From: Baffinella frigidus
Taxonomy: Eukaryota > Cryptophyceae > Cryptomonadales > Baffinellaceae
NCBI GenBank assembly: GCA_026770585.1
Contig: MU646332.1
Location: 407,021 to 431,814 of the forward strand
DNA length: 24,794 nucleotides
Direction of reading: 5' to 3'
Position 1 is the first letter of the stretch. Every line of letters begins with the position of its first letter. Below, in pieces: positions 84 to 24,794 of the stretch. The position numbers and the translations under genes are program-made. Under the pieces are notes generated by a model. That model ran no database searches and was not told the DNA's origin. It worked only from the letters and a program-made list of their open reading frames with translations.

Positions 84-235
84 CCTGCAGCACGCAGGCC
101 TGCAGCTCCCGGCTTTGACCATCAACTGTGACAACCCCTAAACCCTAAACCATCAGCACCTGCATCAACCCCGAATAGGCTTTGACCATCAAATCTGGCC
201 ATCACCTGCACGACGCAGGCCTGAAAACAGCTCCC
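84..235 (-). pseudogene. Two 3' fragments of armadillo-gene exon 4
   Basis: On the minus strand, 84-113 reads the end of exon 4 (RELQACV..) followed by the donor GTGATGG. A second, more decayed piece near 190-225 keeps only GGCCTGCGTCGTGCAG and the same donor, followed by intron sequence resembling that after the intact exon (GTGATGG-CARATTTGATG). Both lie downstream of the intact exon 530-604 in sense direction and keep only its 3' side. Telomere-like text (CCCTAAACCCTAAACC) separates them. Confidence 0.6.
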
Positions 236-390: not shown

Positions 391-399
391 AACCATCAC

Positions 400-461
400 C
401 TCCATCACACAGGCCTGCAGCTCCCGGCGGCGCCACGCGACCTTGAGGAACACGCCCAGCC
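400..461 (-). pseudogene. 5'-truncated copy of armadillo exon 4
   Basis: The minus strand reads GLGVFLKVAWRRRELQACVM then E and the donor GTGATGG, closely matching the intact exon at 530-604, but the first four codons (VQEF) are replaced by GTGTGGGGTGAGG-type sequence. It lies downstream of the intact exon and keeps the donor. The reading frame is still open, so either decay is recent or the copy could still be spliced from an alternative acceptor. Confidence 0.7.
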
Positions 462-529
462 CTCACCCCACACCCCATACCCTCAACCCTCAACCGTGAA
501 AGGCTTCGATCATCAAATTTGACCATCAC

Positions 530-3500
530 CTCCATCACGCAGGCCTGCAACTCCCGGCGGTGCCACGCGACGTTGAGGAACACACCCAGCCCGAACTCCT
601 GCACCTGCACAAAGTTCAGGGTTCAGGGTTCAGGGTTCAGGGGCCTGCGACCGCCCCCACCACACCGGTTGTGGATCTTACTCACAACTGAACCTGCGCA
701 GATCCCCGACACAACCTTGTTAACTCACCCTCATCCCCGACACCACCTTTCAACTCACCCTCTCAAGGGCCGTTCGCACCTGGTGGGGGGTGTTGAGGAA
801 CCCCGACACCACCTTTTTCAACTCAACCCAAACCCCAGCACCACCTCTTCACTCACCCTAATCCCCGACACCACCTTTTTTAACTCACCCTAATCCCCGA
901 CACCACCTCTTCACTCACCCTCGCGGGGGCCGTTGGCGCCAGGGCGGTGCCCTCGTGACCTTTGTGAGGGGGGGGTTAGGAACATGCTTCGCTGTGCCAC
1001 GCATGAGAGGGGTTGAGGAAAACGCCTGAGAGGGTTGAGGAGTTGCCACGCCTGAGAGGGGTTCAGGAACACATTCATGGGCTCACGGCCTGAAAATGGG
1101 GTAGTTGGGCATACGGCATTGCCTAGGACCTCCTACCGTAGGCCGAGGGATCCTAGGACCCAAAAGTCTCGGCCCACGGTAGGGAGGTCCTGGGCAATGC
1201 CGTAGGCCTAACTACCCCATTTTCAGGCCGTTGCCCTATTAATATCTCGCGTTTCCAAACCTCGTTGATAAACACGCCCAGCCCGCTGCACCTGCGACCG
1301 CCCCCCGCACAACGGTTGTTCAGTGCAGGGGTACCTCGCTCAAAACAAAGCGCGCCCCTCCCTAGGACCACCGGAGGGCCCTAGGCATAGGCCTATTGTA
1401 GGGGCCTAGGGGAGTGCGGTTTCTTATAAGCGAGGTACCCCTGTATTCGGTACTGAACCCTGGCAGGGGGTGTTCGCTCCGGGGCGGTGGATGTCATCCA
1501 TGGGGTAGCGAATGCTGAGACCTGTTTCGAGAGTAATAAAGACCTGTTTTGAGAGTAATAAAGAAGAAGAAATAACCTGTGTGTGTGTCGGTCTAAATTC
1601 AGGGTAGTTAACATGGGCGGCCATGGATGCGGCCACCTATACAAGAAACCCGGGCCTAGACGGCCCACCGTAGTCAATACCGTAGGCTTAACTACCCTGA
1701 ATTTAGGCCGTAGGCGTAACTACCCTGACTACCGTAGGCGTAACTTCCCTGAATTTCACCCTTTGGACGTGTGTGTTTGTCGGATACCGCAGGCGTAACT
1801 ACCACGCAAGAGTGTAGGGCAGAGTGGCCTGCAGGAGAAATAGCCAGATCTGGCTATTTTCAAATGTTCATAAGTCAACATTCTCCCCAGAGAAAAATCG
1901 AAATTTCGGGAAGTTGATACAAAGTCCGTGTGAACTGACTTGTTTTCCCAGGTCTGTGTTACACTCTTGCGTGGTACCCTGAATGGTAGCCTTTGAACCT
2001 ATGTGTTTGTCGGATGGATTGCCATAGCTGCGGCGACCTCTACGAGAAACCCAGACCGTAGTCAATACCGTAGGCGTAACAACCCTGACTACCGTAGTCA
2101 ATACCGTAGGCGTAACTACCTGTGTGTTTGTCGGATGGGCGGCCATGGCTGCGGCGACTTGCTGCACTCCCCCCGCCTCCACCACCTACGACCAAGCCGC
2201 TTTTTAGATCACCGCCTCTGGGCCTCTGGGGAGCACGGGTGCGGAGCCTGACGCGGCACTGCGGGTATCTACGGAGGTATCTCAAAAAGCCATGGCTGCG
2301 GCGACCTGCTCCACTCCGCCCGCCTCCACCACCTACGATCAAGCCTCCGTAAATCGGGGCTCCTCGCTGAATACATCAAGATCAGGACTCCGTACAAACG
2401 TGCAAACAGCGTCCAGTACGCCCCCGCCTCCACCACCTACGATCAAGCCGCGGTTTCATCTCGGAAGATAACTGAATAAGCTCCCTGTTAGCGTTTTCAT
2501 GTAATTAGGAGGCCTAATTAAATTTGCTATGCCCTGACTAATTTCTCCTATTCAATCTCGAGAAAAAACGCACGCGGTGTGCGGGAGGGGTGCGCGCGCG
2601 ACCCACCAGCCCTCACAGCCTGTCCACATCCTAAATCGGTTTGGTCCGTGTACTAGTCCAAGGAAGCCGGATCTCGGCGTCCTTGTACCAGAAAAATATA
2701 AGGACATAAGTGATTTGGGCTTTCTCCGGTCAAGAGTGGACTCGAGGATATATCTGGCAACTCAAGATCACGTTGCCCTTGAAACCGGGAGGAATCCTCC
2801 AGGTCGTGATGAATGATTTCTTGTACAAAAAAGTGGGGAAGTTGGTGAAAACCTTGGCCTTGTTCTTCTTGTGGAGCGCGAGGTTCATGAGAGCCCCGGA
2901 TCCTCTCCACTGGATTCCAGCGTGGGACGCGTGGGAGCGCATCGCTGATACCACCGCTTCGACGCCCCCCTTCTCCGCGACGACCAGCTCCTGCCATAGG
3001 GCTGGATTGTCAGTGCTGGACTGATGAATCATCAATGATATCAGCAGTTATCAGCTGCTGAGCTGATAATACTGATGCTGATAACCAGGGTTTCGGGTTT
3101 CGGGTTTCGGATTTCGGGTTTCGGGTTTCGGGTTTCGGGTTTAATTATCCCGGTTGATGCAGGACCTGCCAGTTGTTCTGCGCGGCGAGCTTCATGAGCA
3201 CGCGGCAGGCGTTCTCTTGAACGCCCGATCCTCGGTGCGCGCGCATCGCGCGAATAACGGTCTCGACGTTGGTGACAACAACGGCGTGTGCCTGCTGGTT
3301 GCTGGAGAGGATGGAGGAGAGCACGCGGCAACCGGTGCCTTGCACGTCGGCGTTTGCTCCGTGAAGGTGCATCATCCTCAGCGCCGTCCACGGTTCCGTT
3401 TTCCCCTCCATCCGCTTCAGCGCGTCCTGTACCTCCACGACCTCGCCGTCTCCAGCGTCCTTCAGGGCAGAACCTCGCCGGGAATCCGCATGCGGATTTC

Positions 3501-3579
3501 CAAAACTTTCGCCCGAGCCACCGATACCTTTCTCGTCGATCGGCACGATCGCGTTCTTTGCGCTGTGGCAGTTCCCCAT
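530..3579 (-). CDS. Armadillo-repeat protein with N-terminal acylation motif (3' partial)
   Basis: Four exons join in phase 0: 3579-3166 (138 codons), 2990-2853 (46), 2185-2120 (22) and 604-530 (25). The gene continues past the left edge. The start MGNCHSAK has Gly2, Cys4, Ser6 and a following Lys, which fits N-myristoylation plus palmitoylation and so membrane anchoring. After a ~60-residue polar leader come armadillo-type helices: VQGTGCRVLSSIL, VETVIRAMRAH, VQENACRVLMKLA, then GGVEAVVSAMRSH and GSGALMNLA in exon 2, GGVQQVAAAMAAHP in exon 3 and VQEFGLGVFLNVA in exon 4. Exon 2 alone, and exons 3+4 together, each supply about one repeat (46-47 residues). Introns are GT-AG (donors CAG|GTCCTG, AAG|GTTTTC, CAG|GTAGTT, GAG|GTGATG). 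Armadillo proteins are generally protein-binding scaffolds; the partner cannot be told. Fragments of exons 1, 3 and 4 recur in or near the gene. Confidence 0.8.
605..1086. repeat. Intron 3: telomere-like and decayed exon-4-like sequence
   Basis: Immediately upstream (sense) of intact exon 4, positions 612-640 hold four TTCAGGG units between an older acceptor-like block (GCGGTCGCAG on the minus strand) and the acceptor now next to the exon. From 680 to 920 there are repeats of CCCCGACACCACC(TTTTT)CAACTCACCCT. From 925 to 1075, GCCACGC...GAGGGGTTGAGGAA(CAC) recurs several times and resembles the middle of exon 4 read on the opposite strand. I see no intact gene. Confidence 0.5.
1087..1229. mobile_element. 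Foldback element, GGCCTGAAAATGGGG family
   Basis: The ends are perfect 20-base inverted repeats, GGCCTGAAAATGGGGTAGTT and its complement, with a further imperfect arm (CATTGCCTAGGACCTCCTACCGTAGGCC). There is no coding capacity. No clear target duplication is visible. A related, more decayed element with the same TAGTTTAGCC / ATTGCCTA / CCTACCGTAGGCC layout is at 8721-8863. Confidence 0.75.
1240..1300 (-). pseudogene. Decayed 5' copy of armadillo exon 4
   Basis: On the minus strand an acceptor GCGGTCGCAG is followed directly by GTGCAG-CGGGCTGGGCGTGTTTATCAACG (in two parts), matching the start of exon 4 with a small deletion that shifts the frame. It is upstream of the intact exon and keeps the acceptor side. 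The block before it (CGTTGTGCGGGGGGCGGTCGCAG, in part) also occurs at 640-665 upstream of the intact exon, where telomere-like repeats have come between it and the exon. Confidence 0.55.
1327..1442. mobile_element. GTAC-family foldback MITE
   Basis: The ends read AGGGGTACCTCGCTC and GCGAGGTACCCCT, with an inner inverted core (CCTAGGACCACCGGAGGGCC / GGGGCCTAGG). The length is 116 bases, in line with the 115-base copies near 11.2 and 11.4 kb. The flanks (GTGC left, GTAT right) no longer match perfectly, which suggests an old insertion. Confidence 0.75.
1593..1706. repeat. Inverted repeat CTAAATTCAGGGTAGTTAA
   Basis: Perfect 19-base inverted repeats lie at 1593-1611 and 1688-1706. The interior contains a decayed piece of armadillo exon 3 (minus strand, 1612-1640), so this is either a foldback element that took in the fragment or a palindrome formed from inverted copies of intron 3 (TAACTACCCTGAATTTAG, echoed at 1723-1756). 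Confidence 0.6.
1802..1974. mobile_element. MITE with 15-base inverted repeats and TA duplication
   Basis: The terminal repeats CCACGCAAGAGTGTA and TACACTCTTGCGTGG are perfect, and the element is 173 bases long. It is flanked by TA on each side (1800-1801, 1975-1976). Removing the element and one TA restores GTAACTACCCTGAAT, the motif present intact at 1689-1703, so a pre-insertion sequence is available. A TA target duplication is typical of Tc1/mariner-type elements; there is no transposase. It contains an internal palindrome TAGCCAGATCTGGCTA. Confidence 0.75.
2437..2852. other. Rest of armadillo intron 2
   Basis: Besides the two exon 3 fragments to its left, this intron has an AT-rich patch at 2460-2560 with a palindrome TAATTAGGAGGCCTAATTA near 2501-2519. 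I recognise no gene or element in 2560-2852. The forward and reverse frames crossing 2577-3035 are continuations or shadows of exon 2. Confidence 0.45.
3023..3141 (-). repeat. Armadillo intron 1: CTGATA palindromes and CCCGAAA tract
   Basis: Positions 3087-3141 hold about eight TTTCGGG units (CCCGAAA on the sense strand), a regular seven-base relative of the telomere-like repeat. Beside it, 3030-3085 carries nested short palindromes built from ATCAGC/GCTGAT and TGATATCA. The whole intron is 175 bases (2991-3165). Confidence 0.7.
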
Positions 3580-4379: not shown

Positions 4380-4585
4380 GCTAAACACTAAACACTAAAG
4401 ACTAAAGACTAAACACTAACTGAAGCGTGTGGGTAGGCATTGCCGCGAGTGGTCGAGCTCTAACGCGTGTGGATTGGCTCTGACGCGTGTGACTTGCCCC
4501 TAACCCCTAACCCCTAACACCTACCCCCTAACACCTAACACCTAACACCTAACCCCTAACCCCTAACCCCTGACCCCCTAACGTC
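4380..4585. repeat. Telomere-like tracts (CTAAACA, CTAACCC types)
   Basis: There are two blocks: 4380-4418 has CTAAACACTAAAGA units and 4497-4580 has CTAACCCCTAACACC units. Both are C-rich on the plus strand. Unit length varies from six to eight bases, so these are degenerate interstitial arrays and not a functional telomere end. Confidence 0.75.
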
Positions 4586-8602: not shown

Positions 8603-8620
8603 GCAAGAGTTGAACCCAAA

Positions 8621-10190: not shown

Positions 10191-10196
10191 CTGTAC

Positions 10197-11681: not shown

Positions 11682-14600
11682 TTAGAAGTTGGCCTCACGC
11701 TGCTTCCTCTTGGCCATGCTGCGGTTGCGCATCGACTCCTTGTCCTGTTGCGGGTTTAGTCCAGAATGTTTAGTGTTTAGTGTTTAGTGTTTAGTGATTA
11801 GTGTTTAGTGATTAGTGATTAGTAGTTTTCATGGTTCAGGGCCACCCGGCGAAAGTGGGGTTAGAGTTGCGGATGCAGGGCCACTCGGCGACTCAGCACC
11901 GCACGAGTGTTGTGCGTGGCGTGCAGTGCGTAGCGGGCTACGGGGGGGACGAGCGCTGCTGACAGGGCGCTGATAGCACGCGGCAGGGCGTTGCGATCAC
12001 GTGCACTCGATCTAGCAACGTCTCCAAGCTGACAGACAACTATCTACCTTGCAGCAGATCGGACCTCGTAGTGGACCCGGGCTTCAAGGAGAAACAATCA
12101 GGGATTCTAGATCAGAGCGGGGGCTCTCATCTAGAAGAGAGAGAGCTTCTAGCTCTGCCTCAGTCGGATTGGCAGACTATTCTCAAGTCGACATGCTGAG
12201 TTGGCCGTACACATCCGTCAACTTTGGGGCGGAAAAGAGCCCGGTCTCACCAAATCGGCAAGACCAATTAGACAGAGGGAGAGCTAGACCTTGCGGATCA
12301 TCTTCTCGTTGTTGGTCTCGAAGGTCTTCCGGCGCTTGAGCTCCATGAGGTGCCCCGACTTGCTGCACGCCATCTGTAATGCCGCAGGTTCAGGGTTCAG
12401 TTTTTTTTGTTTTTGTTTTTGGTTCACGGCCTTGGGGTCCACGCGCCCTTCAGCACCACAACTGTGCAAGTTTCCCTTCTGCAAACGCCGCGGGCTCAGG
12501 GGTTAGGTTTCTGGGGATTTGGTTCAGGGCCTTGGGGTGTAAGGTCCACACGCCATCCAGCACCGGATCTCTGCACGTTTTCCATCAGGGTTCATAGTTC
12601 ACGGTTCAGGTTTGAGGGCGCTTGAGCTCCGTCAGGTGCAGCCCCGACTTGCTGCACGCCATCTGCCGCGGGTGTAGGGGTTAGGGTTTTGCGCTTAAGT
12701 TTCGTGGACTGAGAGGGTTTTGCGCTTAAGTTTCGTGGACTCTGATCTGAGTCCACGCGCCATTCAGCACCGGAACTGTGCAAGTTTCCCTTCAGGTTGG
12801 TCAGTGATGGAGTTCATGGTTTATGGTTCAGGGTTGAGGGCGCTTGGGCTCCATCAGGTGGCCGGACTTGCTGCACGCCATATGGAAACGCAACAGAGCA
12901 TTTAGGGTTTTGGGTTTAAGAAGAGTGACAGTTATGAGATCATACGCCTTTTAGCACGGCAGAGCAGCACGAGGCCAGGCTGTGGACTGTCGCCCTCGGC
13001 CCCGAGCACAACGCCCATCCCCGCACACGGAACATACTTGCACGCCACCTGCCCGCGTGTCCTTCGTACTAGGCTTGACTTTACCAGGACGACAACTAAA
13101 CCGGGCAGGCTTGGTCCCAGAGAAATTTCTGATCGGTCAACAGTCGTGTTGACGCTCGGGTCCTCACATGGTCGGTGCTGACCCGCGCGATGCATAGCAT
13201 CATTTGATGCCTAAAAGGTAGGGTAGGGTACTCCATAACCACTCTTTCGGCGGGAACTGGCGCCGATCCTTCAAATTCCGCCGGGAGTTCGGGAGCCGAT
13301 GCGCGAAACTCCAGGCAGGAAATTTGGTCTAGCTCTTGCTCAGTACTGCAACTTCTAGCTTCATCTCAGTACTGAGCCCTCCACTTAGCAACCACCGGGG
13401 GCTTCACGGATACAGTCCATTTAAACGAATTGCACTAAAATCTTATCCAGTTGAATCGGATTCCAACCGACTTCCGCCCGGATTTCCGGGCGAACAGGAA
13501 CTCGGCCGCTGCCAAGTGGAGGGGGTAGCAACCTTGAAACGGCGGATGGCGGACTCGATGGGCTCGCCGTCGTTAACCGACACCTTGATGTCCACCATCG
13601 ACAGCTGCGAGAGGGGGGAGAGCGCAGCCTGTTCCGAGGGCTTAGGGGTTAGTGTTTAGTGTTTAGTGTTTAGTGTTTAGTGTTGAGTGTTTGGAGTTAA
13701 GGGTTTGGGATTTGGGATCTGGGGGTTTGGCCCACCACCGCGTGTCAGCGCTCGACGCTACAGAACGATTCTGTCTCTGCAGCATCCTCAAAACGTTGTA
13801 GAAGTTATCTTGTATTCGAGATAACCTTGAGGGTTAGGGTTCAGGACTGCCCATCAGGGCTGCGTTCACTGGATTGCTATGCGTGGCGCACGGGCGTTCA
13901 CGGGCAGCGGGCAGCGCAGCCTACCCCATACGCACGCATCAGCGTGGCGTATGGTTCCGGTGCGGGACAGTTGGGCATCCCAGCGCCCAGCTGTTCATAC
14001 CGATCCCACGTGCACTGGTTCATCTGCCTTCCACACGCCGCTACGTTCAAACCGCCCAACACACCACATCCAACCATCGCCTACTGCTCGCAATTCCGAA
14101 GACAGACTCGCACCCATCCTCCCCCCACCGCTGATTCGACCGCCGTGCAAGAGATCACACCAGTCAAACTACGCACACCAATTGCCCTCAGGCGCCGCAG
14201 CATTCGTCTCCCCATAGCACACTAGGGGACGGATCGAGTGCTAGGCGTGAAAAAGACCTCCACGTCACGCCCTCGATCCCTAGCTGCATGACCGGAACCG
14301 GATTGGGTGCAAAAGCTCATAACAGTCAATTTACACACACTGGCCTCCAGACTCGTATCTCGCGACGTCCCTGGGCGCCGCAGCATTCTCCTCCGTCCCC
14401 AGCAGCGGCCATCCCACCCGCTTTTCGCACGGCGCGCACCCACGCAGCTAGGGATCAAGGGCGTGAAGTGGGTGGCGTTCTGTTTCGCCAGTAACACTCG
14501 ACCCTTCCCGCTACATGGGTTTCTCGAAATCAAGGAAACGCACCGCCATAGGGTCCTCGTACCGCCATAGGGTCCTACAGTAGGGCTAGTGCTAGGACTC

Positions 14601-15935: not shown

Positions 15936-18900
15936 ATGACGGGGACAGTGACGGGAGGACGCGAAGACGAGGACGCGAGGACGAAGAAGTCTTCCGCAGG
16001 CGCGGAGCTCGCGGAAGAAGGGGCAGATTCTGAGCAGCGCGCTCCGGAGCGGGACGATGACCCAGCTGGGTTCAGCCTCTCTGGGGGAATCTTTTCCAGG
16101 CACAGATGGGGGCGGCACTCCGTGTTCCGACTCTTCCCCCTCCTCGCGCTCTCAGTGATTCCGGTGGTCATCATCGCCCCCATGTCACCGACCATCATAA
16201 AGGCGCGCTTCCATGTTTCGATGTGTCCAAACCTCACCGCTGCGTTATATCACAACGCCACGTCGGGGAAGGGGATAGAGGAAGAAGGCTACGAACGAGA
16301 GGCAATCCAGGATTCTGGGCGGGGGGTCGCTGCTGTGGCCACTGCGCTGGTTGCAGGCTGCATCGCCGACAAGTTTGGAAGGTAGCCGTACCCCTCACCT
16401 GACCTGCACCGACCCACTCGGTCAATCTTTACGGGGCGCATCGCCCCGGGCCCCACACCTTCCCCGGAAACGAGAGGACTCACCCCACCCTCGCGTTGCC
16501 CCGAGCAGAAAGGCGCTGCTGATAGGCGGGCTCCTCGGCGGGGTGGTGCCGTACGCGGTCCTCGCCGCGACGTGCGACACAGCCTACTACATCCCGCTGT
16601 ACACGATCGGCTCTGCCTTCGAGACGTGCATCAGCATTGCGGTGCGCGCCCTGACAGGAGCTGCCCCGGGGGCAATCCTCAATAGTCCTCCGTGGACAAA
16701 GTTGACGCCTTTTTGTACCACTACGATACTTTCCCCGCCTTCCAGTACTAGAATCCCTTGATGATCTCGACCGCTCGGATTCCGCGCGGTTTCTATACGA
16801 ATCGACCTTCACCCCCCCCCGGGTCGACTCTTCTCAGGTCCTGGCTCGTGGATGTAACTCGAGCAGCGGTTAGTGACTCTATGGCCAAAAATCCACCAGG
16901 GTTACCCACGTTGCGAGAGAGGTACCGAGTCGCGTCCAAATATCAAGATACTCTGCACGAGCCGCGTCCAAATAAGCCTCCCCTTCAACGTTGGCGTTCT
17001 GCATGCCCTAGCCCTGGGTGACGCACGGTGGCTTGGTGGCAGTGATACTACTGGTAGCGCACCACTCCACGCTGTTGGCCGACCTGGTCCCCGACCCTGG
17101 GTGATATACTCGCGGTGAGTATTCCTGAGGAACACGATTTCGGGGATCCCCGATCCGATTGTGGTGTATCTTAAGGGTAGAGATTAGACAGTCGCCTGTT
17201 GGCCTTCATTTACAGCTTCAAGATACACCACAATCGGATCGGAGATCTCCGAAACCGTATTCCTCGGTGTTACTCGTCCGGACGAGATCTGACCCTGCGG
17301 TTGGGCGTGGCAGGTGTACTCGCTTGTGGCGGACCTGGCGCCGACGCACCAACGCGCCCAGGTCATCGGCCAGATGTTCTTCGCATCCCTGGTCCAGCCC
17401 CCCCCACCAGCCCTCCGAAGTGAACCAAACCGAGCGATCGCAAAAATTTCCATCCAGGGGAATTGCCCACACGTCTCCATATCCCGATTTGGTTCATTTA
17501 TGAGGGCTGGTTCCGAAACCTCCACTGCAATTCCAAACCCTCCACTGCAATTAAACACGCGAAAGCTTTCCAAACCCTCCACTGCAATTAAACATGCGAA
17601 AGCTCCTGGCGTCGACGCACCAGCGCGTCCCTCACATCGGCCAGATGTTCTTTGCCTCTCTCGTGCACTCTCCTACACCCCAAACCCCACACTCCACACT
17701 CCACACTCCACTCTCCACACTCCACACTCCCAGCCCATCGGCCAGAAATTTCTTCGCCTCTATGGGCAAACCCAAACCCAAACCTGAACCCTACGCTACA
17801 CGCTACACCCTGCACCCTCACACCGACCAGTTGGCCCCACCTCCCTGGTCCTGTCCCCTCGACCCAGACCCGTAAAACCCTGGTGCCGTCCCCTCAACTC
17901 GAGCCCCTCCTCCCTGTGTCCGTCCCCTACGCCGAAACCCCTAAACTACATGCGCTGAACCCTCAACCCTGTACCCTTAACCCTACACTCTAACCCCCAC
18001 CCCCTGTTCCCCAACCTTCCCCTCGCCCCCTAACCCCCAACCCCACCCTCATCCCTAAACCCTAAACCCTCATCCCTCATTCTCAAACTCAAACCCCTAA
18101 ACCCTCATCCCTCAACCCTCAACCCTCAACCCCAATCCTCAAGCTCAAACCCCTAAGCCCTAAACCCTAAACCCTAAGCCCTAAACCCTACACCTTAAAC
18201 CCTAAACCCTAACCCCTCCTAACCCTCAACCTAACCGCAGCTCCCGCTGATGGTGCTATCGCCGCTCGGAGGATATCTCTCGGAGCACTACTCGGAGAAC
18301 GACGCCCGCTTCATCTTCCTCATCGCCGCCGTAACCAGGTCTCCTACAGATTTCTGTTAATTCACATGTCTTTAATTTTACGTTGATTCACAAGTATTTA
18401 ATTTACTCACAATTTTTGTATGATTGTATCTTGCTTAATCATCTTATCAGCTGTGTTATACCAACATGTATAATGTAAGATGACCACGCAAGATATTTTG
18501 CCTATTGGTATGATTTAGCTGGTGCTATCGCCGTTCGGGGGTATCTCGCGGAGCACTACTCAGAGAACGACGCCCGCTTCATCTTCCTCATCGCAGCTGC
18601 CACAAGGTCCCCTCAGGGAGAGTGCTTAAATTGATTTAACTGCTGCTCACACTGGTCTACGCGATCTTGTTCCTGCAGGCGGCCCCGCCCCCCCCTTCCC
18701 CCAGCCCTTCTTTCACACGTTACTCCGTGCCCTGCACCGCGTCGGCTTGCACGAATTGAAATGCACGATTTGCCGCAGCTTGCTCCCGCTGGTCTATGTG
18801 GGCTGCTAACGCTAGTTCAATTCGCCGAAGCTGGCCTCAATGTCAATTCGTCGAAGCTGACGCTAGTGCACCGCAGCCTGCTGCCGTATTATTTGTATAG

Positions 18901-21900
18901 TCATAATATTTGTTCAGTCTAAATGAATTTTTGGGGACCCAAAAGCGCACCTGGCGCCCCCAAATCACCTTGTTGGACGGGGCGCGTTCCGGGCGTACTT
19001 TGAGGTTCCGGGCGTCGGGCTTGCATACTTTGAGGGTCTGGGCGTCGGCTGACATGTCCCGAGCGGCGAACCGCAGCCTGCTGCCGCTGGTCTACGCGGT
19101 GCTGTTTGCGCACGAGGCACCTTCGAACCTCCGTGTTGGGCGGGCCTTCGGAATTCCCCCTTCCCCCAGCCTCTGACCGCGTCGACTTGCACGAATTGAA
19201 ATGAGCGAATCGTCGAAGCTCACGCGAACGCAACAAATTGAAATGAGCGCATTGCCGCAGCCTGCTGCCGCTGGTCTACGCGGTGCTGTTCGTGCATGAG
19301 GCGCCGCGGGTGGCGCCGATCCAGGACGTCATCTTCGAGGACGTCCTCGTGCGCCACGGGAACGAGGTGCCTATTATATTGGCAGCCGCCGGTGCCTTCG
19401 GGAATCGGTCCATGTGAAAGACCACCCCACAAACTGTAACTCGCTTCGCCAGTCACGTGCCCAATCTGTTCGTAGAGTTGGCACAGACCTGCGCGGGTTA
19501 GACAAGCGTCGTGTGCGGACGCGTCAGACCAAATAGACTGTGGGCGTAGAGCTGTAGAGCCCGTAGAGCTCTACGGGCTCTGCGCCACCTCGCTCCCCTG
19601 ACCCTTAAGCCCTGACACGTAGCCTCTACACCCTTCACCTTACACCCTAAACCCTGCACCCCAAACTCCAAACCCCTTAGGGGTCAGGGGAGCTCTGCGC
19701 CACCTCGCCCGTAGAGCGTGCCCACAGTCTATTTGGTCTGACCAATTTGGTGTGACCGGGCTCGTTTTCTCCCCAAAGTTGACGAATTTGTACCGCAACC
19801 CCAGCATGTCAACTTGAGAATAGCCTGCCAAGCGGATGGAGGCAGCGCTAGAACCCCACCGGCCTTATCAACATCTGCGATTTCTGAGTCGTTTTTGAGG
19901 CCATCAGATCCGAAACTGCTCCGTGAGACTCTCACAACTTTCGAGGCCCCGACAACTTTCGAGTGACGAGACTTTCTGACAGCAGGGTGGAGGCAAGGAA
20001 GAGGGTCCACAGGCTCCGTGCGACTCTCACAACTTTCGAGGCTCTTACAAGTTTCGAGTTCAGACAACTTTCGAGGGATGAGTGATGATGGGTTATGAAT
20101 GCAGGCGGAAGGCGAGGGGGAGGGTCCGCAGGCTCCATGAGACTCTCACAACTTTCGAGGTTCTGTCAACTTTCGACTGAGAGGTTGACGAGGGGTTATG
20201 CATGCAGGGTGGCGGAGAGGGGGAGGGTCCGCAGGGTGCGACGCTTCACGTGGAGCCTCATAATGCTATCCTGGGAAACATATTTTTCTTTAGTTTGATG
20301 GCAAGGAAAATTACTACATAAATGCTTCAATATTACTAATAAGAACGAATTGTGTAGTAATTTTCCTTGCCATCAAACTAAAGAAAAATTGGTTTCCCCG
20401 GATAAAATGAGGAGACCGGCAGTTGATTTCCCTGTTTAGTGGCGCCACTTCATCAACGTTTGGTGTGGAGCGATCAGGCAACGATCAGTCAACCCGACCG
20501 AGGCAGAGCTATGGCCCTCACAACTTTCGACTGATGAGGGGTTATGAATGCAGGCTGGAAGCGAGGGGGAGGGTCCGCAGGGTGCAAAGATCCACGTGGA
20601 CATGAATCGGAAGTCCAGCAACGCTCGGGCGGGGAGCTGGGTACGACACAGCCCGCTCTCAGGGTTTGGGGTTTGGGGTTTGGGGTTTGGGGTGTAGGGT
20701 TTAGGGTGTAGGGTGAAGGGTGTAGAGGCTACGTGTCAGGGCTTAGGGGTCAGGGGAGTCGCTCCGCAGATGCGCGGCGAGTCCGCGCCAGGGCACAAGT
20801 TCCTTTTTCACACACACTCGTTCACAAATCCTGGTACAAATTCTTTTAAAAAAACATTATACCCGCGGCGAAGAGCTCCAATTCCCATCACTTTTGGCGT
20901 GTTTCTCGGGTAGAATCAAGTTTACACGAACGAAGTATCATTTAACTACACGATCTCGAAAATTGAACTTGTGACCTGGCGCGGTTGTATTGTGCGAGAG
21001 AGCAAATTGTGTTTGTTACGGATCGCACCCAACATGGACACACTCCATGTGCGGATGGGCGCACGGCACTGCACGACGGCAGGCCCCTGAAGTTACGCGA
21101 GACGGGGTCTTCGGGGAAGTCTGTCCTCGGCGAAATGAACTCGGTGCTCGGGGAAATGAAGAGGAGGGCGTAGGTAGCCAGTGACGAGACTTTCTCCCCA
21201 AGGCTTAATCTTGAAGAATGCATGAGCCTTTGACAGTCCCCTAGCGAAGGTCGTGACATTCGACTTGTCACGTGGGACACGTGCGGTTGTGCGTGTTGTT
21301 AGGCTTGGCCTTGTTCTACACCATGTCCTCGATTGCATTGCAGCTAGCACATTGATCACTTTACCCCGGGTAGCGTTGTAGGGTTGGAAAAATAAATAAA
21401 TACTCTACAACGTATTTACAGTAAAGGACGCGTGACGGGGAACTCGGTCCCTCGGCAGGTGCGGCTGTGTGTGCTGCTGGCTGCCGCCTTCTTCTACAAC
21501 ATGTCTTCGACAGTCCCTAAAAAGATTCCGTATCACCAGTGGTTCGGATTCAATTGTGTGCCGAAATTACACTAAGGCGGATGTTTTTTTGTGTGTGCTG
21601 CTGGGTTTCTGTGTGTGCTGCTGGCGGTGGCGCTCTTCTACAACATGTCCGCGATGGGAGAACAGCCCCTAAAAATTGACACCGCTCCGGTTAGATGAAA
21701 ATGACGAGGAATGCGTGGGCAGGTGCGGCTATGCGTGCTGTCATAATCATAATCCTCAAACCCCACACCCTCCAGGTGCGGCTGTGCGTGCTGCTGGCTG
21801 TGGCGTTCTTCTACAACATGTCTTCGATGGGCGAGCAGTCGCTCATCTTCCTCTTCATCTCCAATCAGTTTCCCGTGTGCAAGGGTACACCCTACACCCT

Positions 21901-23870
21901 ACACCCTACACCCTGCGCCCTGCACCCTACACCCTACACCCTACGCCCTACGCCCTACACCCTACACCCTACACCCCACACCCCAAACCCCAAACCCCAA
22001 ACCCCAAACCCCAAACGCTAAACCCCAAACTCTTAACCCCAACCCTAAACCCTAACTCCCAAACCCCAAACCCCAAACCCCAAACCCCGCACCCCACATC
22101 CCAACCCCCACATCCCAAACCCCAAACCCCAAACCCCAGACTCTAAACCCCGAAACCCGAAAACAGGCAACTGCATGGCGGCATTGTTCGCGACATTCTC
22201 GTTCGTCGCGTGTTTCTCCCAGGTCCGCACCACACAGCCACCACTCAACGGACCTTTCATCAAAAGTGGACAACGGACCTTTCATCAAAAGTCAACTTCC
22301 CCTGTGGGCAGTCAACTTTGAGGATTTTCGAATGCAAATTCGGTCACGTCACCGCTAAATCTAGGGGTCCCGAACCACACAGCCATTCGCAGCTCCACTT
22401 AGCAGCCACAGGTGATGGTCAAAGTTGATGGTCAAAATCTCGCGTTGCCAGGCTGCGATGAGGATGTTAGAAGTTGGGTTTTGGGTTTGGGGAGACCGAG
22501 CGGGAGAGGAGAGTTCTCGAACACCTCCTTGCTCTGCGCCGTCTCCACCACTTATCAGCCACCGGGGGCTTCACGGACAAATCCTCACGCGTTCCCTTTG
22601 TTCGCAGGTGAAACGAGAGTTGACTGACTGCAAAGAAAGTTGACTGAAACGCTTGTTCGCAGTTGCTATACCTCCCGCTGACGATGCGCTTCCTCGGGAC
22701 GCTCTGGACCCTGCGCGTCGCGATTCTCTCAGCAGGATGCGCGGTGTTCGTCTACGCTATCGCTACCGAGCTCTGGATGGTCTTCGCTCAGGTTGTGAGC
22801 CCTACTTTGTGAACGCTACAGCCCTAACCCCTAGACCAACCCCCGTACGGACGTATACGCTATCGCTACCGAGCTGTGGATGGTCCTTGCTCGGGTGCGA
22901 GGGTTTAGGGCTTAGGGCGTATGACTTGAGGCTTAGGGCTTAGGGCTTAGGGCTTAGGGCGTAGGTCTTAGAGCTTAGGGCTTAGGGCGCAGGGCTTAGG
23001 GACTTTAGGGTGTAGAGAGCCTATCGCTACAGAGCGATGGATGGTGGCCGCCATCCTTCCTCGGGACGCTCTGGACCCTGCGCGTCGCGATCCTCTCGGC
23101 AGGGTGCGCGGTGTTCGTATACGCTATCGCTACGAATCTCTGGATGGTCTTCGCTCAGGTTGCGAGCCTTCAACCCTAAACCTTAACCCCCGAGCCATCA
23201 GCCCTAAACCCTGAACCCAGAGCTATCGCTACGGAACTGTGGATGGTCTTCGCTCAGGTTGCGAGCCCTACACCCTAAACCCTGAACCCTAGACCCTGAA
23301 CCCTAGTCCCACATTGCCCCCAATGGTACAAATCGGCATTTCCCAAGGCGCGAATCTTGGCGAAGACGTTTGATGCGATGCTGAGTTGTTGATGCCAGGA
23401 CGGCAACTGACGGTGCTTAAACAGAGCCGTTGAAGCTGTGTGCTCAACAAGCGGCGCCCCCTCCCTGCATACCGCTACCGAGCGAGGACGGGACACGATT
23501 TTAAAAACTTTAACCTGAATCCTGAAGGAAATGGACTTTTAAAATGAAAAGCCAGGACCGGAATCCCGGTCCTGGCTGTCTTATGTGTGCCGAGTTGGCT
23601 CGACAGCGGACCGGCGCTATCCCTCCGGCATCAGTCATCAGAATTCATCATTCATCATCATCGGCGCTCCCTCCCTGGACAGTCCGCGGTGGCGGTTCCA
23701 GCGTTCTGCCCCCTGACGTCTGAACCCTCAACTCTGAACCCTGAAACCCTGAACTAAACCCCTGAACCCTAGCCCAGAACCCAGAACACCCAAGCAGTTG
23801 GCGGTGCCGGTGCCAGCGTTCTGCTCCCTAAAGCCTGAAGCCTGAAGCCTGTACTCTGAACCCTGGACCC

Positions 23871-23923
<53 letters not shown>

Positions 23924-24794
23924 ACCCTGAACCCTCAACCCTCGACCCTGAACGAGTCACCCCTTGACAGTTCGCGGTTGCGGTGCCAGCGTTCTGCAGC
24001 CTGGCGGTCATGAACCAACTCGTCTCGGAAGCCGCCCCTGCGGTCCGCCCCCACTCCGGTTTTGGGTTTTGGGGTTCGGGGTTTGAGGTTTGGGGTTTGG
24101 GGTTTGGGGTCTAGGGTTTAGGGGTTAGGTGCCTCATAACCTGGTGTTGAGACTCGAAACCTCTCACGACCCCCCTCCCTTTGAACTCACGCTCTCCCCC
24201 TCTTCTTCACACCATCATGCCACTCACCCGCCAGCTCTGACACTCCCACTGATCCACCTTCCTGCGGGATAGTGGTGCTCCAGTCAAGCAGGGGTACTCG
24301 GTTAGGGATGATCGGCCCCGATCATCCCCTGACCGTCCAGAACTTTCCCCAACATTCCAGAACATTCTCCTATCCCTTTTGCTTTGAACATTCCAGAACA
24401 TTCTCCTCACTACCGATCGTGTAGTACGAAAAATCACCCCCCTGGCCGTCCAGAACCGTCCAGAACATTCCAGAACATTCCAGAACATTCTCTGACCGGT
24501 CTACGCGATCCAGGAGATGATCGGGCGCGCACAAGGCCTCCTCGAAGCCTCTCGAAGAACCGCCAAGATCCTCGCGCTCCCTGACCGCCTGAAACATTCC
24601 AGAACATTCCAGAACATTCTCCTCACTACCGATCGTGTAGTACGAACATCACCCCCCTGGCCGTCCAGAACCGTCCAGAACATTCCAGAACATTCTCTGA
24701 CCGGTCTTCGCGATGCAGGGGATGATCGGGCGCGCACAAGGCCTCCTCGAAGCCTCCCGAACAACCGCCAAGATCCTCGCGCCCCCCCTCTTCG
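15936..24794 (+). CDS. MFS transporter, 12-helix type (3' partial)
   Basis: Eleven exons join with consistent phases: 15936-16381, 16509-16671, 17314-17391, 18241-18338, 19261-19366, 20554-20640, 21776-21884, 22167-22222, 22663-22791, 23971-24042 and 24719-24794, over 470 residues before the window ends. An acidic cytosolic leader (GGREDEDARTKKSS) precedes helix 1 (FPLLALSVIPVVIIAP) and a lumenal loop with NLT and NATS sites. The MFS signature between helices 2 and 3, GCIADKFGRK, is split by intron 1. LVADLAPTHQRAQVIGQ follows helix 4. Exons 5-6 hold the central loop, exons 7-9 helices 7-9, exon 10 helix 10 (VAVPAFCSL) and exon 11 RAQGLLEASR at helix 11. The last motif and layout resemble the TetA/HIAT1-like drug:H+ antiporter branch; the substrate is unknown. 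All introns are GT-AG except intron 2, which reads best with a GC donor (CCGGGG|GCAATC). Most exons from the third onward have nearby partial copies. Confidence 0.8.
16672..17313. other. MFS intron 2, with possible decayed exon copy
   Basis: The donor appears to be GC. Near 17040-17090 the plus strand reads ..LLADLVPDPG, which resembles the start of exon 3 (SLVADLAPTHQ) and is followed by GTGATATACTCGCGGTGAG, reminiscent of the exon 3 acceptor region. This may be an old upstream copy, but similarity is weak. A foldback element occupies 17127-17265. Confidence 0.4.
17127..17265. mobile_element. Foldback element with 46-base arms
   Basis: Arms at 17127-17172 and 17220-17265 are inverted repeats with about four mismatches (GAGGAAYACGRTTTCGG..GATCCGATTGTGGTGTATC). 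The loop is 47 bases. No target duplication is evident and there is no coding capacity. Confidence 0.75.
17314..17770 (+). repeat. MFS exon 3 and two downstream 3' copies
   Basis: Intact exon 3 (17314-17391, 26 codons) is followed by 17607-17668 (THQR..HIGQMFFASLV, frame kept) and 17735-17762 (CATCGGCCAGAAATTTCTTCGCCTCT). Both downstream copies keep 3' portions of the exon. The first runs into CTCCTACACCCCAAACCCCAC and the second into CCCAAACCCAAACCTGAACCC. At 17520-17605 a phrase AAACCCTCCACTGCAATT(AAACAYGCGAAAGCT) repeats three times. Confidence 0.8.
17404..17512. mobile_element. Imperfect foldback element in intron 3
   Basis: CCAGCCCTCCGAAGTGAACCAAACCG at its left end is complementary, with several mismatches, to CGATTTGGTTCATTTATGAGGGCTGG at its right end. 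The interior is about 55 bases of unique sequence. This is small and decayed, so it is a tentative MITE. Confidence 0.5.
17680..18240. repeat. Telomere-like array filling MFS intron 3
   Basis: From 17685 (CACACTCCACACTCCA units) through 17765-17820 (CCCAAACC, CTACACC) and 17935-18235 (CCCTAAACC, CCCTCAACC, CCCTCATCC) the sense strand is C-rich nearly to the acceptor CTAACCGCAG of exon 4. A different CCCTGGT..CCGTCCCCT repeat lies at 17835-17930. Confidence 0.8.
18241..18606 (+). repeat. MFS exon 4 and its near-complete downstream copy
   Basis: Exon 4 is 18241-18338, ending CCAG|GTCTCC in phase 2. A copy at 18519-18606 reads LVLSPFGGYLAEHYSENDAR.. and ends CAAG|GTCCCC. It lacks the first three codons but keeps the donor, and differs by mostly conservative changes (L to F, S to A, V to A). 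Because only a weak acceptor (TTTAG) precedes it, it is probably not used, but mutually exclusive splicing cannot be excluded from sequence alone. Confidence 0.8.
18345..18515. other. AT-rich island between exon 4 copies
   Basis: This ~170-base stretch (TTTAATTTTACGTTGATTCACAAG-type text, in part) is strongly AT-rich in a GC-rich gene and holds no telomere-like repeats. TTCACA(T/A)GT.TTTAATTT occurs twice at 18360-18405. Its composition suggests inserted DNA, but no terminal repeats or target duplication are clear. Confidence 0.5.
18640..19366 (+). repeat. MFS exon 5 with four upstream 5' copies
   Basis: The intact exon is 19261-19366 (acceptor TTGCCGCAG, donor AACGAG|GTGCCT), encoding the end of helix 6 (LLPLVYAVLF) and the start of the central loop. 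Upstream copies are 18640-18676 (LLTLVYAILFL), 18779-18805 (LLPLVYVGC then stop), 18877-18886 (start only) and 19077-19125 (LLPLVYAVLFAHEAP). The last three keep a CCGCAG acceptor. Intron text (GTCG.CTTGCACGAATTGAAATG, TTCGTCGAAGCT.ACGC) is repeated with them, so intron and exon start were duplicated together. Confidence 0.85.
19523..19742. mobile_element. Foldback element with 23-base perfect ends
   Basis: GTCAGACCAAATAGACTGTGGGC at 19523-19545 (given here in full family form; 23 bases) is perfectly inverted at 19720-19742. Inside is a hairpin GAGCCCGTAGAGCTCTACGGGCTC, a repeated GCTCTGCGCCACCTCGC at 19579 and 19693, and a telomere-like tract at 19635-19675. Its right end overlaps the dispersed repeat at 19729-19857. 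Confidence 0.65.
19729..19857 (-). repeat. Dispersed repeat, inverted relative to 12145-12271
   Basis: The minus strand matches 12145-12271 along its length, with substitutions. It lies in MFS intron 5 and is antisense to the MFS gene. See the partner entry for shared motifs. Confidence 0.75.
19986..20640 (+). repeat. MFS exon 6 with three upstream 5' copies
   Basis: The chosen exon is 20554-20640 (29 codons, acceptor ATGAATGCAG, donor GCTGG|GTACGA, phase 0 both sides), encoding a hydrophilic central-loop segment with SEGEGPQGAKIHVDMNRK. Upstream copies begin at 19986 (GGGKEEGPQA), 20105 (AEGEGEGPQA) and 20208 (GGGEGEGPQGATLHVEPHN), all in the same frame and all behind an AG acceptor. The preceding block (CTCACAACTTTCGAGG..GATGAGGGGTTATGAATGCAG-like) repeats with each. 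Identity rests on frame conservation and phase fit; the loop itself is not a recognisable domain. Confidence 0.6.
20269..20402. mobile_element. AT-rich MITE with ~50-base inverted repeats, TA duplication
   Basis: The inner arms at 20283-20318 and 20353-20388 are 36 bases and perfectly inverted (TTTTTCTTTAGTTTGATGGC..). The outer ten bases TCCTGGGAAA and TTTCCCCGGA nearly match. TA flanks both ends (20267-20268, 20403-20404). The 134-base element contrasts in composition with its surroundings and sits at the end of the third exon 6 copy. It resembles a Tc1/mariner-type MITE; no transposase is present. Confidence 0.8.
20652..20757. repeat. Inverted copy of the 19600-19680 telomere-like block
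   Basis: The complement of 20652-20757 reads CTCCCCTGACCCCTAAGCCC, TGACACGTAGCCTCTACACC and then C-rich telomere-like units, matching 19595-19675 almost base for base through the irregular part. The two copies lie 1 kb apart in opposite orientation within the MFS gene. Confidence 0.75.
20760..21280. other. Left part of MFS intron 6
   Basis: No exon copy or element is recognised. GGGGAAGTCTGTCCTCGGCGAAATGAACTCGGTGCTCGGGGAAATGAAG at 21113-21161 (in parts) contains a short internal repeat TCGGSGAAATGAA. The overlapping forward and reverse frames here look accidental. Confidence 0.45.
21281..21884 (+). repeat. MFS exon 7 with four upstream 5' copies
   Basis: The intact exon is 21776-21884 (helix 7, VRLCVLLAVAFFYNMSSMGE..; donor AAGG|GTACAC, phase 1). 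Copies are 21281-21336 (VRLCVLLGLALFYTMSS), 21459-21511 (VRLCVLLAAAFFYNMSS), 21590-21667 (CVLLAVALFYNMSAMGEQ, with a second start piece CVLLG just before) and 21723-21742 (VRLCVLS). All lie upstream and keep the 5' part, and the second and fourth keep a GCAG acceptor. Substitutions are largely conservative. Confidence 0.85.
21885..22160. repeat. Telomere-like array filling MFS intron 7
   Basis: The intron between exons 7 and 8 is almost wholly telomere-like. CTACACC units start at the donor itself (GGTACACCCTACACCC) and pass into CCCCAAA units from about 21975 to 22150, ending just before the acceptor GAAAACAG. The proline-rich frames across it are translations of the repeat. Confidence 0.85.
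22223..22662. other. MFS intron 8
   Basis: CAACGGACCTTTCATCAAAAGT occurs twice in a row at 22246-22290 and GGTC.CG.ACCACACAGCCA at 22222-22241 and 22366-22385. The latter begins with the donor side of exon 8, so it is a duplicated intron start. GATGGTCAAA(GT/AT) is doubled at 22413-22437. A dispersed fragment shared with 13389-13411 lies at 22553-22578. Confidence 0.55.
22663..23257 (+). repeat. MFS exon 9 with four downstream 3' copies
   Basis: The intact exon is 22663-22791 (acceptor TTCGCAG, donor CTCAG|GTTGTG, 43 codons, helices 8-9). Downstream copies are 22850-22892 (YAIATELWMVLA), 23021-23045 (short), 23056-23158 (FLGTLWTLRVAILSAGCAVF..; lacks about nine codons) and 23222-23257 (AIATELWMVFAQ). 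Three keep the exon end and the donor-side text GT(T)GCGAG. Telomere-like tracts follow, either GGGCTTAGGG-type (22905-23010) or CCCTAAACC-type (23165-23215, 23263-23310). Confidence 0.85.
23551..23576. other. Strong perfect hairpin in MFS intron 9
   Basis: GCCAGGACCGG pairs perfectly with CCGGTCCTGGC around a short loop, preceded by CTTTTAAAATGAAAA. It looks like a bacterial intrinsic terminator stem, but in this eukaryotic intron it is more likely a remnant of a small foldback element. No function can be assigned. Confidence 0.5.
23683..24042 (+). repeat. MFS exon 10 with two upstream 5' copies
   Basis: The chosen exon is 23971-24042 (FAVAVPAFCSLAVMNQLVS.., donor CCTGCG|GTCCGC). Copies at 23683-23709 (SAVAVPAFC) and 23798-23824 (LAVPVPAFC) keep a CAG acceptor and the first nine codons, then pass into CTGACGTCTGAACCCTC and CTAAAGCCTGAAGCCTG, telomere-like in character. 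A regular CCCTCAA array lies at 23870-23950 before the intact exon. The exact 3' end of this exon is inferred from phase. Confidence 0.75.
24330..24794 (+). repeat. MFS exon 11 duplicated in a ~205-216-base tandem unit
   Basis: CCTCACTACCGATCGTGTAG begins at 24405 and 24621. Each unit then has CCGTCCAGAACCGTCCAGAA, a CCAGAACATT minisatellite of variable length, CTCTGACCGGTC and an exon start at 24514 or 24719 (MIGRAQGLLEASR). The first copy diverges after AAGATCCTCGCGC into CCTGAAACATTCCAGAACATT. The second continues KILAPPLF, as expected for helix 11, so it is taken as the real exon, cut by the window end. Confidence 0.8.

What the first reader, a model, noticed from the sequence alone, without database searches (positions are those of the whole stretch)
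84..24794. Exon echoes obey a polarity rule in all three genes
Around armadillo exons 3 and 4, bS21 exon 3 and MFS exons 3, 4, 5, 6, 7, 9, 10 and 11 there are extra partial copies. Without a clear exception among those I could place, copies upstream (in sense) keep the 5' part, usually with acceptor, and copies downstream keep the 3' part, usually with donor. A tandem duplication with one breakpoint inside an exon produces exactly this while leaving one intact exon. The pattern in three unrelated genes suggests a genome-wide process that lengthens introns by duplicating exon edges. I know of no description of such a rule.
Basis: partly seen in the sequence, partly recalled or inferred. Interest (0 to 1): 0.92.

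Follow-up and report, generated by a model that had tools for sequence, protein, structure and literature searches.

The report
Partial exon copies inside algal introns
In three neighbouring genes of a cold-water cryptophyte alga, introns carry decaying partial copies of the adjoining exons, placed as local head-to-tail duplication would leave them, so they keep a record of how these introns grew.

Summary
The window is Baffinella frigidus nuclear DNA (by protein match) with an armadillo gene, a plastid-type bS21 gene and an MFS transporter gene. Of 33 exon-copy hits above 60 shuffles, 33 are same-strand; 19 lie upstream nearer the exon's 5' edge, 12 downstream nearer the 3' edge. The two nominal misfits are an internal piece of a composite copy and half of a copy split by an indel. 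13 of 13 exon-side groups obey. A spliced database protein matches my MFS exon joins 277/277 and skips the MFS echoes. Random intron segments show almost no polarity (852 obey, 754 violate; exons 27 and 1). So the rule is geometry: frequent local direct duplication, sometimes with one breakpoint inside an exon, and selection keeping one intact exon. Echoes decay much like neutral DNA. DNA between exons and their farthest echoes is 5034 of 9289 nt in nine echo-bearing introns. Whether this is genome-wide could not be tested. The closest published case I saw is staggered-break repair in Daphnia introns; here the copies are longer and often several per exon.

The parts
3166..3579 (-). armadillo exon A1 (ATG MGNC...), intact
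   Evidence: exon model; matches annotated protein P0002
8618..8699 (-). composite upstream copy of A1: bases 221-274 and 55-81 side by side
   Evidence: A1 235-272 score 38 vs null max 16.5
2853..2990 (-). armadillo exon A2, no hit above the shuffles
2120..2185 (-). armadillo exon A3, intact (VVEAGGVQQVAAAMAAHPTNTQ)
2289..2332 (-). A3 echo, upstream, 5'-type (bases 1-44), with AG
2306..2332 (-). part of that echo used as a 27-nt exon in the deposited protein P0002
2421..2436 (-). A3 echo, upstream, 5'-type (bases 1-16), with AG and shared intron flank
1999..2037 (-). A3 echo, downstream, 3'-type (bases 28-66), with GT
1770..1785 (-). A3 echo, downstream, 3'-type (bases 50-65)
1613..1636 (-). 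A3 echo, downstream, 3'-side (bases 28-51)
524..604 (-). armadillo exon A4, intact (VQEFGLGVFLNVAWHRRELQACVMEVM)
1263..1285 (-). A4 echo, upstream, 5'-side (bases 12-34)
394..462 (-). A4 echo, downstream, 3'-type (bases 13-81; 6-81 in the gapped scan), with GT
200..226 (-). A4 echo, downstream, 3'-type (bases 55-81), GC at edge, intron flank shared with intact exon
79..113 (-). A4 echo, downstream, 3'-type (bases 47-81), with GT
12617..12662 (-). S4 echo, upstream, 5'-type, with AG
12839..12881 (-). S4 echo, upstream, 5'-type (bases 1-43), AG lost (AT)
17314..17391 (+). MFS exon M3, intact
17605..17661 (+). M3 echo, downstream, 3'-type, with GT
17735..17764 (+). M3 echo, downstream, 3'-type; above the 10 gapped shuffles, not above the ungapped maximum
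18241..18338 (+). MFS exon M4, intact
18518..18606 (+). M4 echo, downstream, 3'-type, near full (bases 9-98), 1-nt deletion, GT
18607..18641 (+). 35 nt between the M4 echo and the farthest M5 echo: the only part of this intron outside exon-to-echo spans
19261..19366 (+). MFS exon M5, intact
18643..18688 (+). M5 echo, upstream, 5'-type (bases 2-47)
18779..18808 (+). M5 echo, upstream, 5'-type, with AG and shared intron flank (gapped hit; equals the ungapped null maximum)
19077..19121 (+). M5 echo, upstream, 5'-type (bases 1-45), with AG
20554..20640 (+). MFS exon M6, intact
20105..20132 (+). M6 echo, upstream, 5'-type, AG and intron flank shared
20208..20254 (+). M6 echo, upstream, 5'-type, AG and intron flank shared
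19986..20013 (+). M6 echo, upstream, 5'-type, weaker (below the null maximum), but intron flank shared
21776..21884 (+). MFS exon M7, intact
21281..21333 (+). M7 echo, upstream, 5'-type (bases 1-53), AG lost (AC)
21459..21510 (+). M7 echo, upstream, 5'-type (bases 1-52), AG
21609..21665 (+). M7 echo, upstream, 5'-side (bases 7-63)
21723..21740 (+). M7 echo, upstream, 5'-type (bases 1-18), AG
22663..22791 (+). MFS exon M9, intact
22852..22894 (+). M9 echo, downstream, 3'-type, GT
23021..23045 (+). M9 echo, downstream, 3'-side (bases 95-119)
23056..23158 (+). M9 echo, downstream, 3'-type (bases 27-129), GT, homology runs on into the intron
23222..23257 (+). M9 echo, downstream, 3'-type (bases 94-129), GT, intron flank shared
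23971..24042 (+). MFS exon M10, intact
23683..23718 (+). M10 echo, upstream, 5'-type, AG
23798..23824 (+). M10 echo, upstream, 5'-type, AG
24719..24794 (+). MFS exon M11, intact start; runs past window end (GMIGRAQGLLEASRTTAKILAPPLF as in P0001)
24514..24581 (+). M11 echo, upstream, 5'-type (64 of 68 identical), AG, about 57 nt or more of intron copied with it

Best explanation
The echoes are debris of repeated local, direct (head-to-tail) DNA duplications in and around introns, each with one boundary inside an exon and the other in the adjacent intron. Such an event leaves one uninterrupted exon plus one truncated copy. The truncated copy lies upstream and keeps the 5' edge if the duplicated piece runs from the intron before the exon into it. 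It lies downstream and keeps the 3' edge if the piece runs from inside the exon into the intron after it. Selection keeps the uninterrupted exon spliced; the truncated copy lacks its partner splice site, is skipped, and decays. Repeated rounds push exon edges apart and lengthen introns from their ends. Shown: copies, orientation, polarity, truncation, neutral-like decay, skipping of the MFS echoes in one spliced sequence, copied intron flank in part of the groups. Inferred: the molecular route, most likely fill-in and end joining of staggered double-strand breaks (I give that route about 0.35), and exon definition as the reason the decoy splice sites are tolerated.
For: 33 of 33 hits above 60 shuffles are same-strand, 31 of 33 follow the rule, 13 of 13 exon-side groups obey. 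Polarity is nearly absent from random intron segments (852 obey/754 violate) but present at exons (27/1), as expected because an intact exon cannot be the inner junction of a duplication. The rest of the exon is missing beside 21 of 25 testable copies. M11: a block at 118/126 identity covers about 57 nt of intron and 69 of exon, and 24386-24581 repeats at 24602-24786. M9: 22689-22901 repeats at 23056-23265. 9 of 13 groups have a within-group intron-flank match at p of 0.014 or less against 441 cross-exon pairs, 6 of them starting at the edge. Mismatches by codon position over 31 anchored copies are 37/388, 26/382 and 75/382: low and similar at positions 1 and 2, about 2.4 times higher at 3, as for a neutral copy against a constrained exon. 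Exon joins match P0001 277/277 and read the same as P0007. Echo-bearing introns are longer (median 1135, n=9, against 492.5, n=8; p 0.011).
Against: For 4 of 13 groups (A3 downstream, A4 upstream, M4, M7) no intron-flank match at that level was found although their exon parts are roughly 74-94% identical, so plain duplication of a long unit does not fit them without filler or later insertions. Three of the 9 positive groups (M3, M10, S4) involve C-rich flank that could match by composition and do not start at the edge; several pairs were tested per group without correction. Telomere-like tracts, a candidate filler, are no more frequent in exon-to-echo spans (12.4%) than in the rest of those introns (15.0%) or in echo-less introns (12.6%). 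The length contrast is confounded: a longer intron has more room for echoes. The random segments overlap each other, so its p-values are too small. The arbiters of 'intact' for the armadillo and bS21 genes are annotations, not transcripts.
Confidence: 0.85

Rival explanations
1. Insertion-type repair: a staggered break spanning a splice site is filled in and non-homologous filler is joined between the two copies, so the exon edge is duplicated like a target-site duplication and the rest of the intron is not copied. This is a sub-route with the same polarity-giving geometry and may apply to part of the events; it overlaps with the best explanation rather than excluding it.
For: M7 has four upstream echoes whose intron flanks match neither the intact flank nor each other (10 pairs, lowest p 0.136). 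The nearest, 18 bases at 21723-21740, ends 35 nt before the intact exon.
Against: M6, M9, M11, M5, A4 (downstream) and A3 (upstream) do carry copied flank starting at the edge, so it cannot be the only route. No excess of telomere-like filler in the spans.
Confidence: 0.35
2. Functional alternative exons: the echoes are mutually exclusive or cassette exons kept for alternative splicing.
For: The deposited protein P0002 uses 2306-2332, a piece of an A3 echo, as a 27-nt in-frame exon. AG at 13 of 19 and GT at 8 of 12 anchored edges.
Against: The copies are truncated (rest of exon absent beside 21 of 25); the nearest to full are M4 (bases 9-98, with a frameshift) and A4 (6-81). Codon positions 1 and 2 also diverge. 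The one spliced MFS sequence seen skips the MFS echoes.
Confidence: 0.05
3. Copies captured from elsewhere by transposable elements or from mRNA by reverse transcription and inserted into introns, with selection removing badly placed ones.
For: Several repeat families and foldback elements lie in the same window.
Against: 33 of 33 same strand and, apart from the two A1 pieces and one likely chance hit, within 0.7 kb of the parent exon. Among the hits listed no copy joins two exons; the closest copies of neighbouring exons, M4 at 18518-18606 and M5 at 18643-18688, are 36 nt apart. Intron flank is copied in several. Splicing logic gives no clear reason why a 5' piece should be tolerated only upstream (inference).
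Confidence: 0.04
4. Assembly artefact of long-read consensus.
For: Assembly reads could not be inspected.
Against: In anchored parts of 15 nt or more, identity to the exon runs from 77 to 100%, 25 of 26 at 94% or below (the one at 100% is 22 nt and ends at an indel), and breakpoints differ between copies. Duplicated reads or collapsed haplotypes would be near-identical (inference).
Confidence: 0.02

Closest known systems
Internal direct repeats from staggered double-strand breaks in new introns of Daphnia pulex (PMC4202315, abstract and passages read)
   Same: Direct repeats inside introns, taken as footprints of staggered-break repair; authors propose a passive trend to longer introns; repeats of the terminal bases of an adjacent exon at the opposite intron end.
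   Different: There the exon-intron repeats are 4-12 bp and concern intron birth, and 61.1% of new against 16.2% of established introns have significant internal repeats. Here kept exon parts run from about 10 to 103 nt, often several per exon, in long introns, and the upstream/downstream polarity is counted.
Tandem genomic duplication as an intron-gain mechanism (review PMC3443670, passages read)
   Same: Local duplication with exon DNA and splice sites carried along.
   Different: There a duplicated exon piece with AGGT creates a new intron. Here existing introns are extended and no new intron is shown.
Small tandem duplications by CST-guided Pol alpha-primase fill-in and Ku-dependent joining (PMC8355091, passages read; rice 'patch-mediated' duplications are in its reference list)
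   Same: A break-repair route that makes local direct duplications without sequence homology.
   Different: Shown in mouse and human cells at Cas9 breaks, for short duplications (under 100 bp in its introduction); nothing is known of the enzymes here.
Interstitial telomeric repeats inserted at double-strand breaks (PMC2246262, PMC7215372; listing and start of abstract only)
   Same: Telomere-like tracts are scattered in the same introns.
   Different: Not enriched between exon and echo, so no link shown.

Membership tests
local direct (tandem) duplication | copies in the same orientation, near the parent | tested here: met
   33 of 33 same strand; 30 of 33 within 0.7 kb, the others being two A1 pieces at 5 kb and one likely chance hit
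local direct (tandem) duplication | partial copies upstream keep the 5' part, downstream the 3' part, when one copy is intact | tested here: met
   31 of 33 hits, 13 of 13 groups; random intron segments 852/754
local direct (tandem) duplication | homology continues into the intron beyond the kept edge | tested here: inconclusive
   9 of 13 groups positive, 6 of them from the edge on; 4 negative
staggered-break repair duplication (Daphnia type) | direct repeat flanking inserted non-homologous DNA | tested here: inconclusive
   M7 pattern fits; no empty allele available to prove insertion
mutually exclusive or cassette exons | full exon with both splice sites and coding constraint | tested here: not met
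   truncated in 21 of 25 testable copies, codon positions 1 and 2 also diverge, MFS echoes skipped in P0001; one annotation uses an echo piece as exon
intron gain by tandem genomic duplication | a new intron absent from relatives | not tested
   no orthologous gene structures were compared

The most novel reading that the evidence does not exclude
In Baffinella, duplication of exon edges is a main way in which introns lengthen. Introns grow from both ends outward, and the echoes are a readable record that lets ancestral introns be peeled back, as in intron M4-M5, where only 35 of 922 nt lie outside the exon-to-echo spans. Genome-wide this would be a sizeable part of the reported 6.1-fold larger genome relative to Guillardia theta.
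Probability: 0.35. Interest if true: 0.72.

Novelty: new variant of a known kind. Interest (0 to 1): 0.55.

Why it matters
To my knowledge (recalled) how introns become long is poorly documented outside transposon insertion. Because exons change slowly, a truncated exon copy stays recognisable after the surrounding intron has decayed, so it places duplication events that would otherwise be invisible. If the density seen in these three genes holds across the genome, one could count events, breakpoints and ages per intron, estimate a duplication rate, and ask how splicing tolerates decoy acceptors and donors next to the true ones. It would also warn gene annotators: a deposited protein here already contains an echo piece as an exon.

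Tried and rejected
Considered the prasinophyte Cymbomonas as source (two papers, passages read); dropped when protein matches pointed to Baffinella. A gapped exon-against-window scan with 10 shuffles gave many low-identity hits for the long GC-rich exons A1, M1, M2, in both orientations, and for A2 two inverted hits above its 10-shuffle maximum; I replaced it by the ungapped scan with 60 shuffles. That gapped scan also stretched some copies across most of the exon at low identity (for example A4 at 79-159, M6 at 20105-20187); I tested this, and beside those two copies the rest of the exon is not detectable. Tested a link between telomere-like filler and echoes: none. Tested whether exon edges are targeted: 11 of 18 exons up to 140 nt have a local same-strand copy against 83 of 250 random intron segments, inverted copies 0 of 20 exons against 34 of 250 segments; the same-strand excess can be due to slower decay of exons, so targeting is not needed. 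Tested whether flanks are always copied: no (the A3 downstream pair 1598/1577 there is the same DNA twice and was not counted). Looked for RNA families and tRNAs in the window: none. Literature searches for partial exon copies or exon fragments in introns returned 1, 1 and 0 papers, none on this by title and abstract start; 'Baffinella' with 'introns' returned 0; a cryptophyte intron search returned one nucleomorph paper. This covers only the open-licence library.

Full report
WHERE THE WINDOW COMES FROM. The armadillo and bS21 proteins of the window match deposited Baffinella frigidus proteins T484DRAFT_1879268 (P0002, 96% identity over the query) and T484DRAFT_1929240 (P0007), both listed with a contig of 1,330,466 bases. 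With corrected acceptors my bS21 model reads the same 119 residues as P0007 (compared by eye; the script's equality test came out false because the file held many records). The window is therefore nuclear DNA of this cryptophyte (taxonomy) or a very close strain. Pfam finds MFS_1 (E 1.9e-20) and Ribosomal_S21 (E 2.2e-12), and for the armadillo model two ARM families at E about 6e-6, both below their curated cut-offs (that query carried three wrongly typed residues).

EXONS. MFS exons M1-M10 were placed by open frame and splice sites. P0001, a 370-residue protein from a 1,651-nt JGI contig, is identical over 277 of 277 residues to the join of the later part of M2 through M10. It continues as GMIGRAQGLLEASRTTAKILAPPLF, which is the frame at 24719, not the echo at 24514, which reads EMIGRAQGLLEASRRTAKILALPDR. 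The genomic span is over 7 kb, so a 1.65-kb contig must be a spliced sequence; that it is a transcript is inferred. For the armadillo and bS21 genes the arbiters are deposited annotations, which is weaker. P0002 even includes 27 nt of an A3 echo (2306-2332) as an exon, giving VVEAGGVEQ-VVEAGGVQQ.

ARE THE ECHOES REAL? A gapped scan and then an ungapped scan with +1/-1.5 scoring compared each of 20 exons with the exon-masked window on both strands. 33 hits exceeded the maximum of 60 dinucleotide shuffles of the non-exon DNA; 33 of 33 are on the gene's strand. By nearer edge: 19 upstream/5', 12 downstream/3', 1 upstream/3', 1 downstream/5'. The last two are A1 235-272, part of a composite copy at 8618-8699 whose other block is A1 55-81, and M4 11-32, the front of the copy of M4 9-98. 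The A1 copy may reach the exon start near 8898, interrupted by a foldback element, but the alignment there is weak, so I do not claim it. Among the 19, the A3 hit at 12645-12660 lies inside an S4 echo in another gene and is probably chance. At the looser per-exon 95% level, 40 same-strand hits are listed (23 upstream/5', 14 downstream/3', 2 upstream/3', 1 downstream/5') against 1 inverted hit. Copies are truly partial. Of 27 correctly anchored copies, 25 leave enough exon to test, and the missing rest is found beside 4 (p below 0.02): S4 at 12662, M3 at 17764 and M4 at 18606 continue past an indel, and for M9 at 23257 the searched stretch includes a neighbouring echo. Ungapped identity just beyond the truncation is 158 of 637 (24.8%), which is chance level.

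THE POLARITY RULE. Copies of one exon are not independent, so I also counted exon-and-side groups: A3, A4, S4, M5, M6, M7, M10, M11 upstream and A3, A4, M3, M4, M9 downstream. 13 of 13 obey (binomial p 2.4e-4; Fisher p 7.8e-4). The decisive control is. With the same kind of search limited to 1 kb and with telomere-like DNA masked, 1500 random intron segments of exon length gave 852 obeying, 754 violating and 40 full-length hits, against 27, 1 and 1 for exons. The 1 violation is again the split M4 copy, and M11 counted as full because the window cuts that exon. The segments overlap each other, so the p-values there (7.9e-7 by hit, 4.0e-4 by segment) are too small, but the contrast is large. This is what tandem duplication predicts. 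A random segment can straddle the inner junction of a duplication, where polarity is reversed; an intact exon cannot. The rule therefore marks which copy is continuous. It is not a law about exon edges.

WHAT KIND OF DNA THE ECHOES ARE. In ungapped kept parts of 31 anchored copies, mismatches to the intact exon number 37 of 388, 26 of 382 and 75 of 382 at codon positions 1, 2 and 3. A neutral copy against an exon that changes mainly at silent sites gives about this ratio (inference). The M4 copy is frameshifted. AG stands at 13 of 19 and GT at 8 of 12 anchored edges. Four anchors in that call (A3 2446, A3 1598, A4 1297, M9 23055) were set wrongly or lie where the edge is absent; they lower these counts and add noise to the flank test there. 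The survival of many splice dinucleotides and their skipping in P0001 suggest that single decoy sites are tolerated, as exon definition would allow (inference).

HOW THE COPIES AROSE. M11 is the clearest: 24386-24581 repeats at 24602-24786 at 91%, with 118/126 identity across about 57 nt of intron and 69 nt of exon (exon start then set one base early). M9 is similar (22689-22901 and 23056-23265, 79%), with smaller nested copies. A first flank test gave a mean of 11.1 of 25 identical against 7.9 for other AG or GT sites (Wilcoxon p 0.022, 31 anchors). Pairwise flank comparison within groups found a match at p of 0.014 or less in 9 of 13 groups (A3 up, S4, M5, M6, M10, M11, A4 down, M3, M9) and none in A4 up, A3 down, M4, M7 (several pairs per group, no correction). 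In six (A3 up, M5, M6, M11, A4 down, M9) the match starts within two bases of the edge; in M3, M10 and S4 it starts further out in C-rich DNA and is less certain. In A4 down, the intact exon shares its flank with the echo at 200, while the echoes at 394 and 79 share another flank that belongs to a foldback element. Echoes of one exon end at different bases (for example M7 at 18, 52, 53 and 63; M9 starting at 27, 87, 94 and 95), so several events per exon are likely, though 94 and 95 may be one. M7, with four echoes and no shared flank, looks more like exon-edge duplication with filler, the outcome described for staggered breaks in Daphnia introns (PMC4202315, passages). Fill-in by CST-Pol alpha-primase and end joining is a known maker of small tandem duplications (PMC8355091, passages). 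Which enzymes act here is unknown.

EFFECT ON INTRONS. In the 9 complete introns with echoes, the DNA between exon edges and their farthest counted echoes is 5034 of 9289 nt. These introns have a median of 1135 nt against 492.5 for the 8 without (p 0.011). One of the span ends (A3 downstream, 1598) was extrapolated 15 nt from the hit. In intron M4-M5, 887 of 922 nt lie in such spans and 35 nt remain. Taking these spans as added DNA assumes each echo was once adjacent to its exon; later insertions and deletions are included. Longer introns also give more room to find echoes. Local direct duplication is not confined to exon edges: 549 of 1500 random intron segments have a local copy, and in an earlier run 83 of 250 against 11 of 18 exons up to 140 nt. 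Telomere-like heptamer DNA fills 12.4% of the spans, 15.0% of the rest of those introns and 12.6% of echo-less introns, so it is not tied to the echoes.

WHAT IS KNOWN AND WHAT IS NOT. The Arctic algae genome paper (PMC9756366, passages) reports 534.5 Mb for Baffinella sp. CCMP2293, 6.1 times Guillardia theta, and its main text has no occurrence of a word beginning 'intron'. The Daphnia study is the nearest relative of the process among the papers I saw. My searches found no description of the polarity count in the open-licence library; most subscription papers are not held there. I judge the rule correct, ordinary in its geometry, and unusual in density and copy size: a new variant of a known kind. 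Whether it is genome-wide remains untested.

Noticed in passing
21885-22166: Intron M7-M8 (282 nt) is almost wholly a telomere-like C-rich heptamer array (91% by my measure; sequence): an intron made of telomere-type repeat.
   Followed up: partly
introns of all three genes: Telomere-like tracts in introns are mostly C-rich in the sense strand (10.6% against 2.6% G-rich of 13591 nt). One reading (inference) is that sense TTTAGGG would create acceptor-like TTTAG sites.
   Followed up: partly
2306-2332 (-): An A3 echo fragment appears as a 27-nt in-frame exon in the deposited protein P0002; either a misannotation or an echo turned into an exon.
   Followed up: partly
3752-6768 (+) and 10422-10720 (-): A repeat family with units of about 340 bases and a conserved core of about 88 bases, several copies in a row and one inverted elsewhere; no Rfam match.
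   Followed up: no
297-390, 1323-1445, 10194-10310, 11151-11280, 11365-11494: Foldback (inverted-repeat) elements of one family that match each other in both orientations.
   Followed up: no
15777-15806 and 14804-14890 (-): bS21 begins with two short exons coding a signal-peptide-like start followed by AEAFMP, resembling cryptophyte plastid targeting sequences (motif recalled, not tested; exons).
   Followed up: no
7274-8597: A degenerate TTTAGGG-like array of about 1.3 kb between the armadillo and bS21 genes.
   Followed up: no
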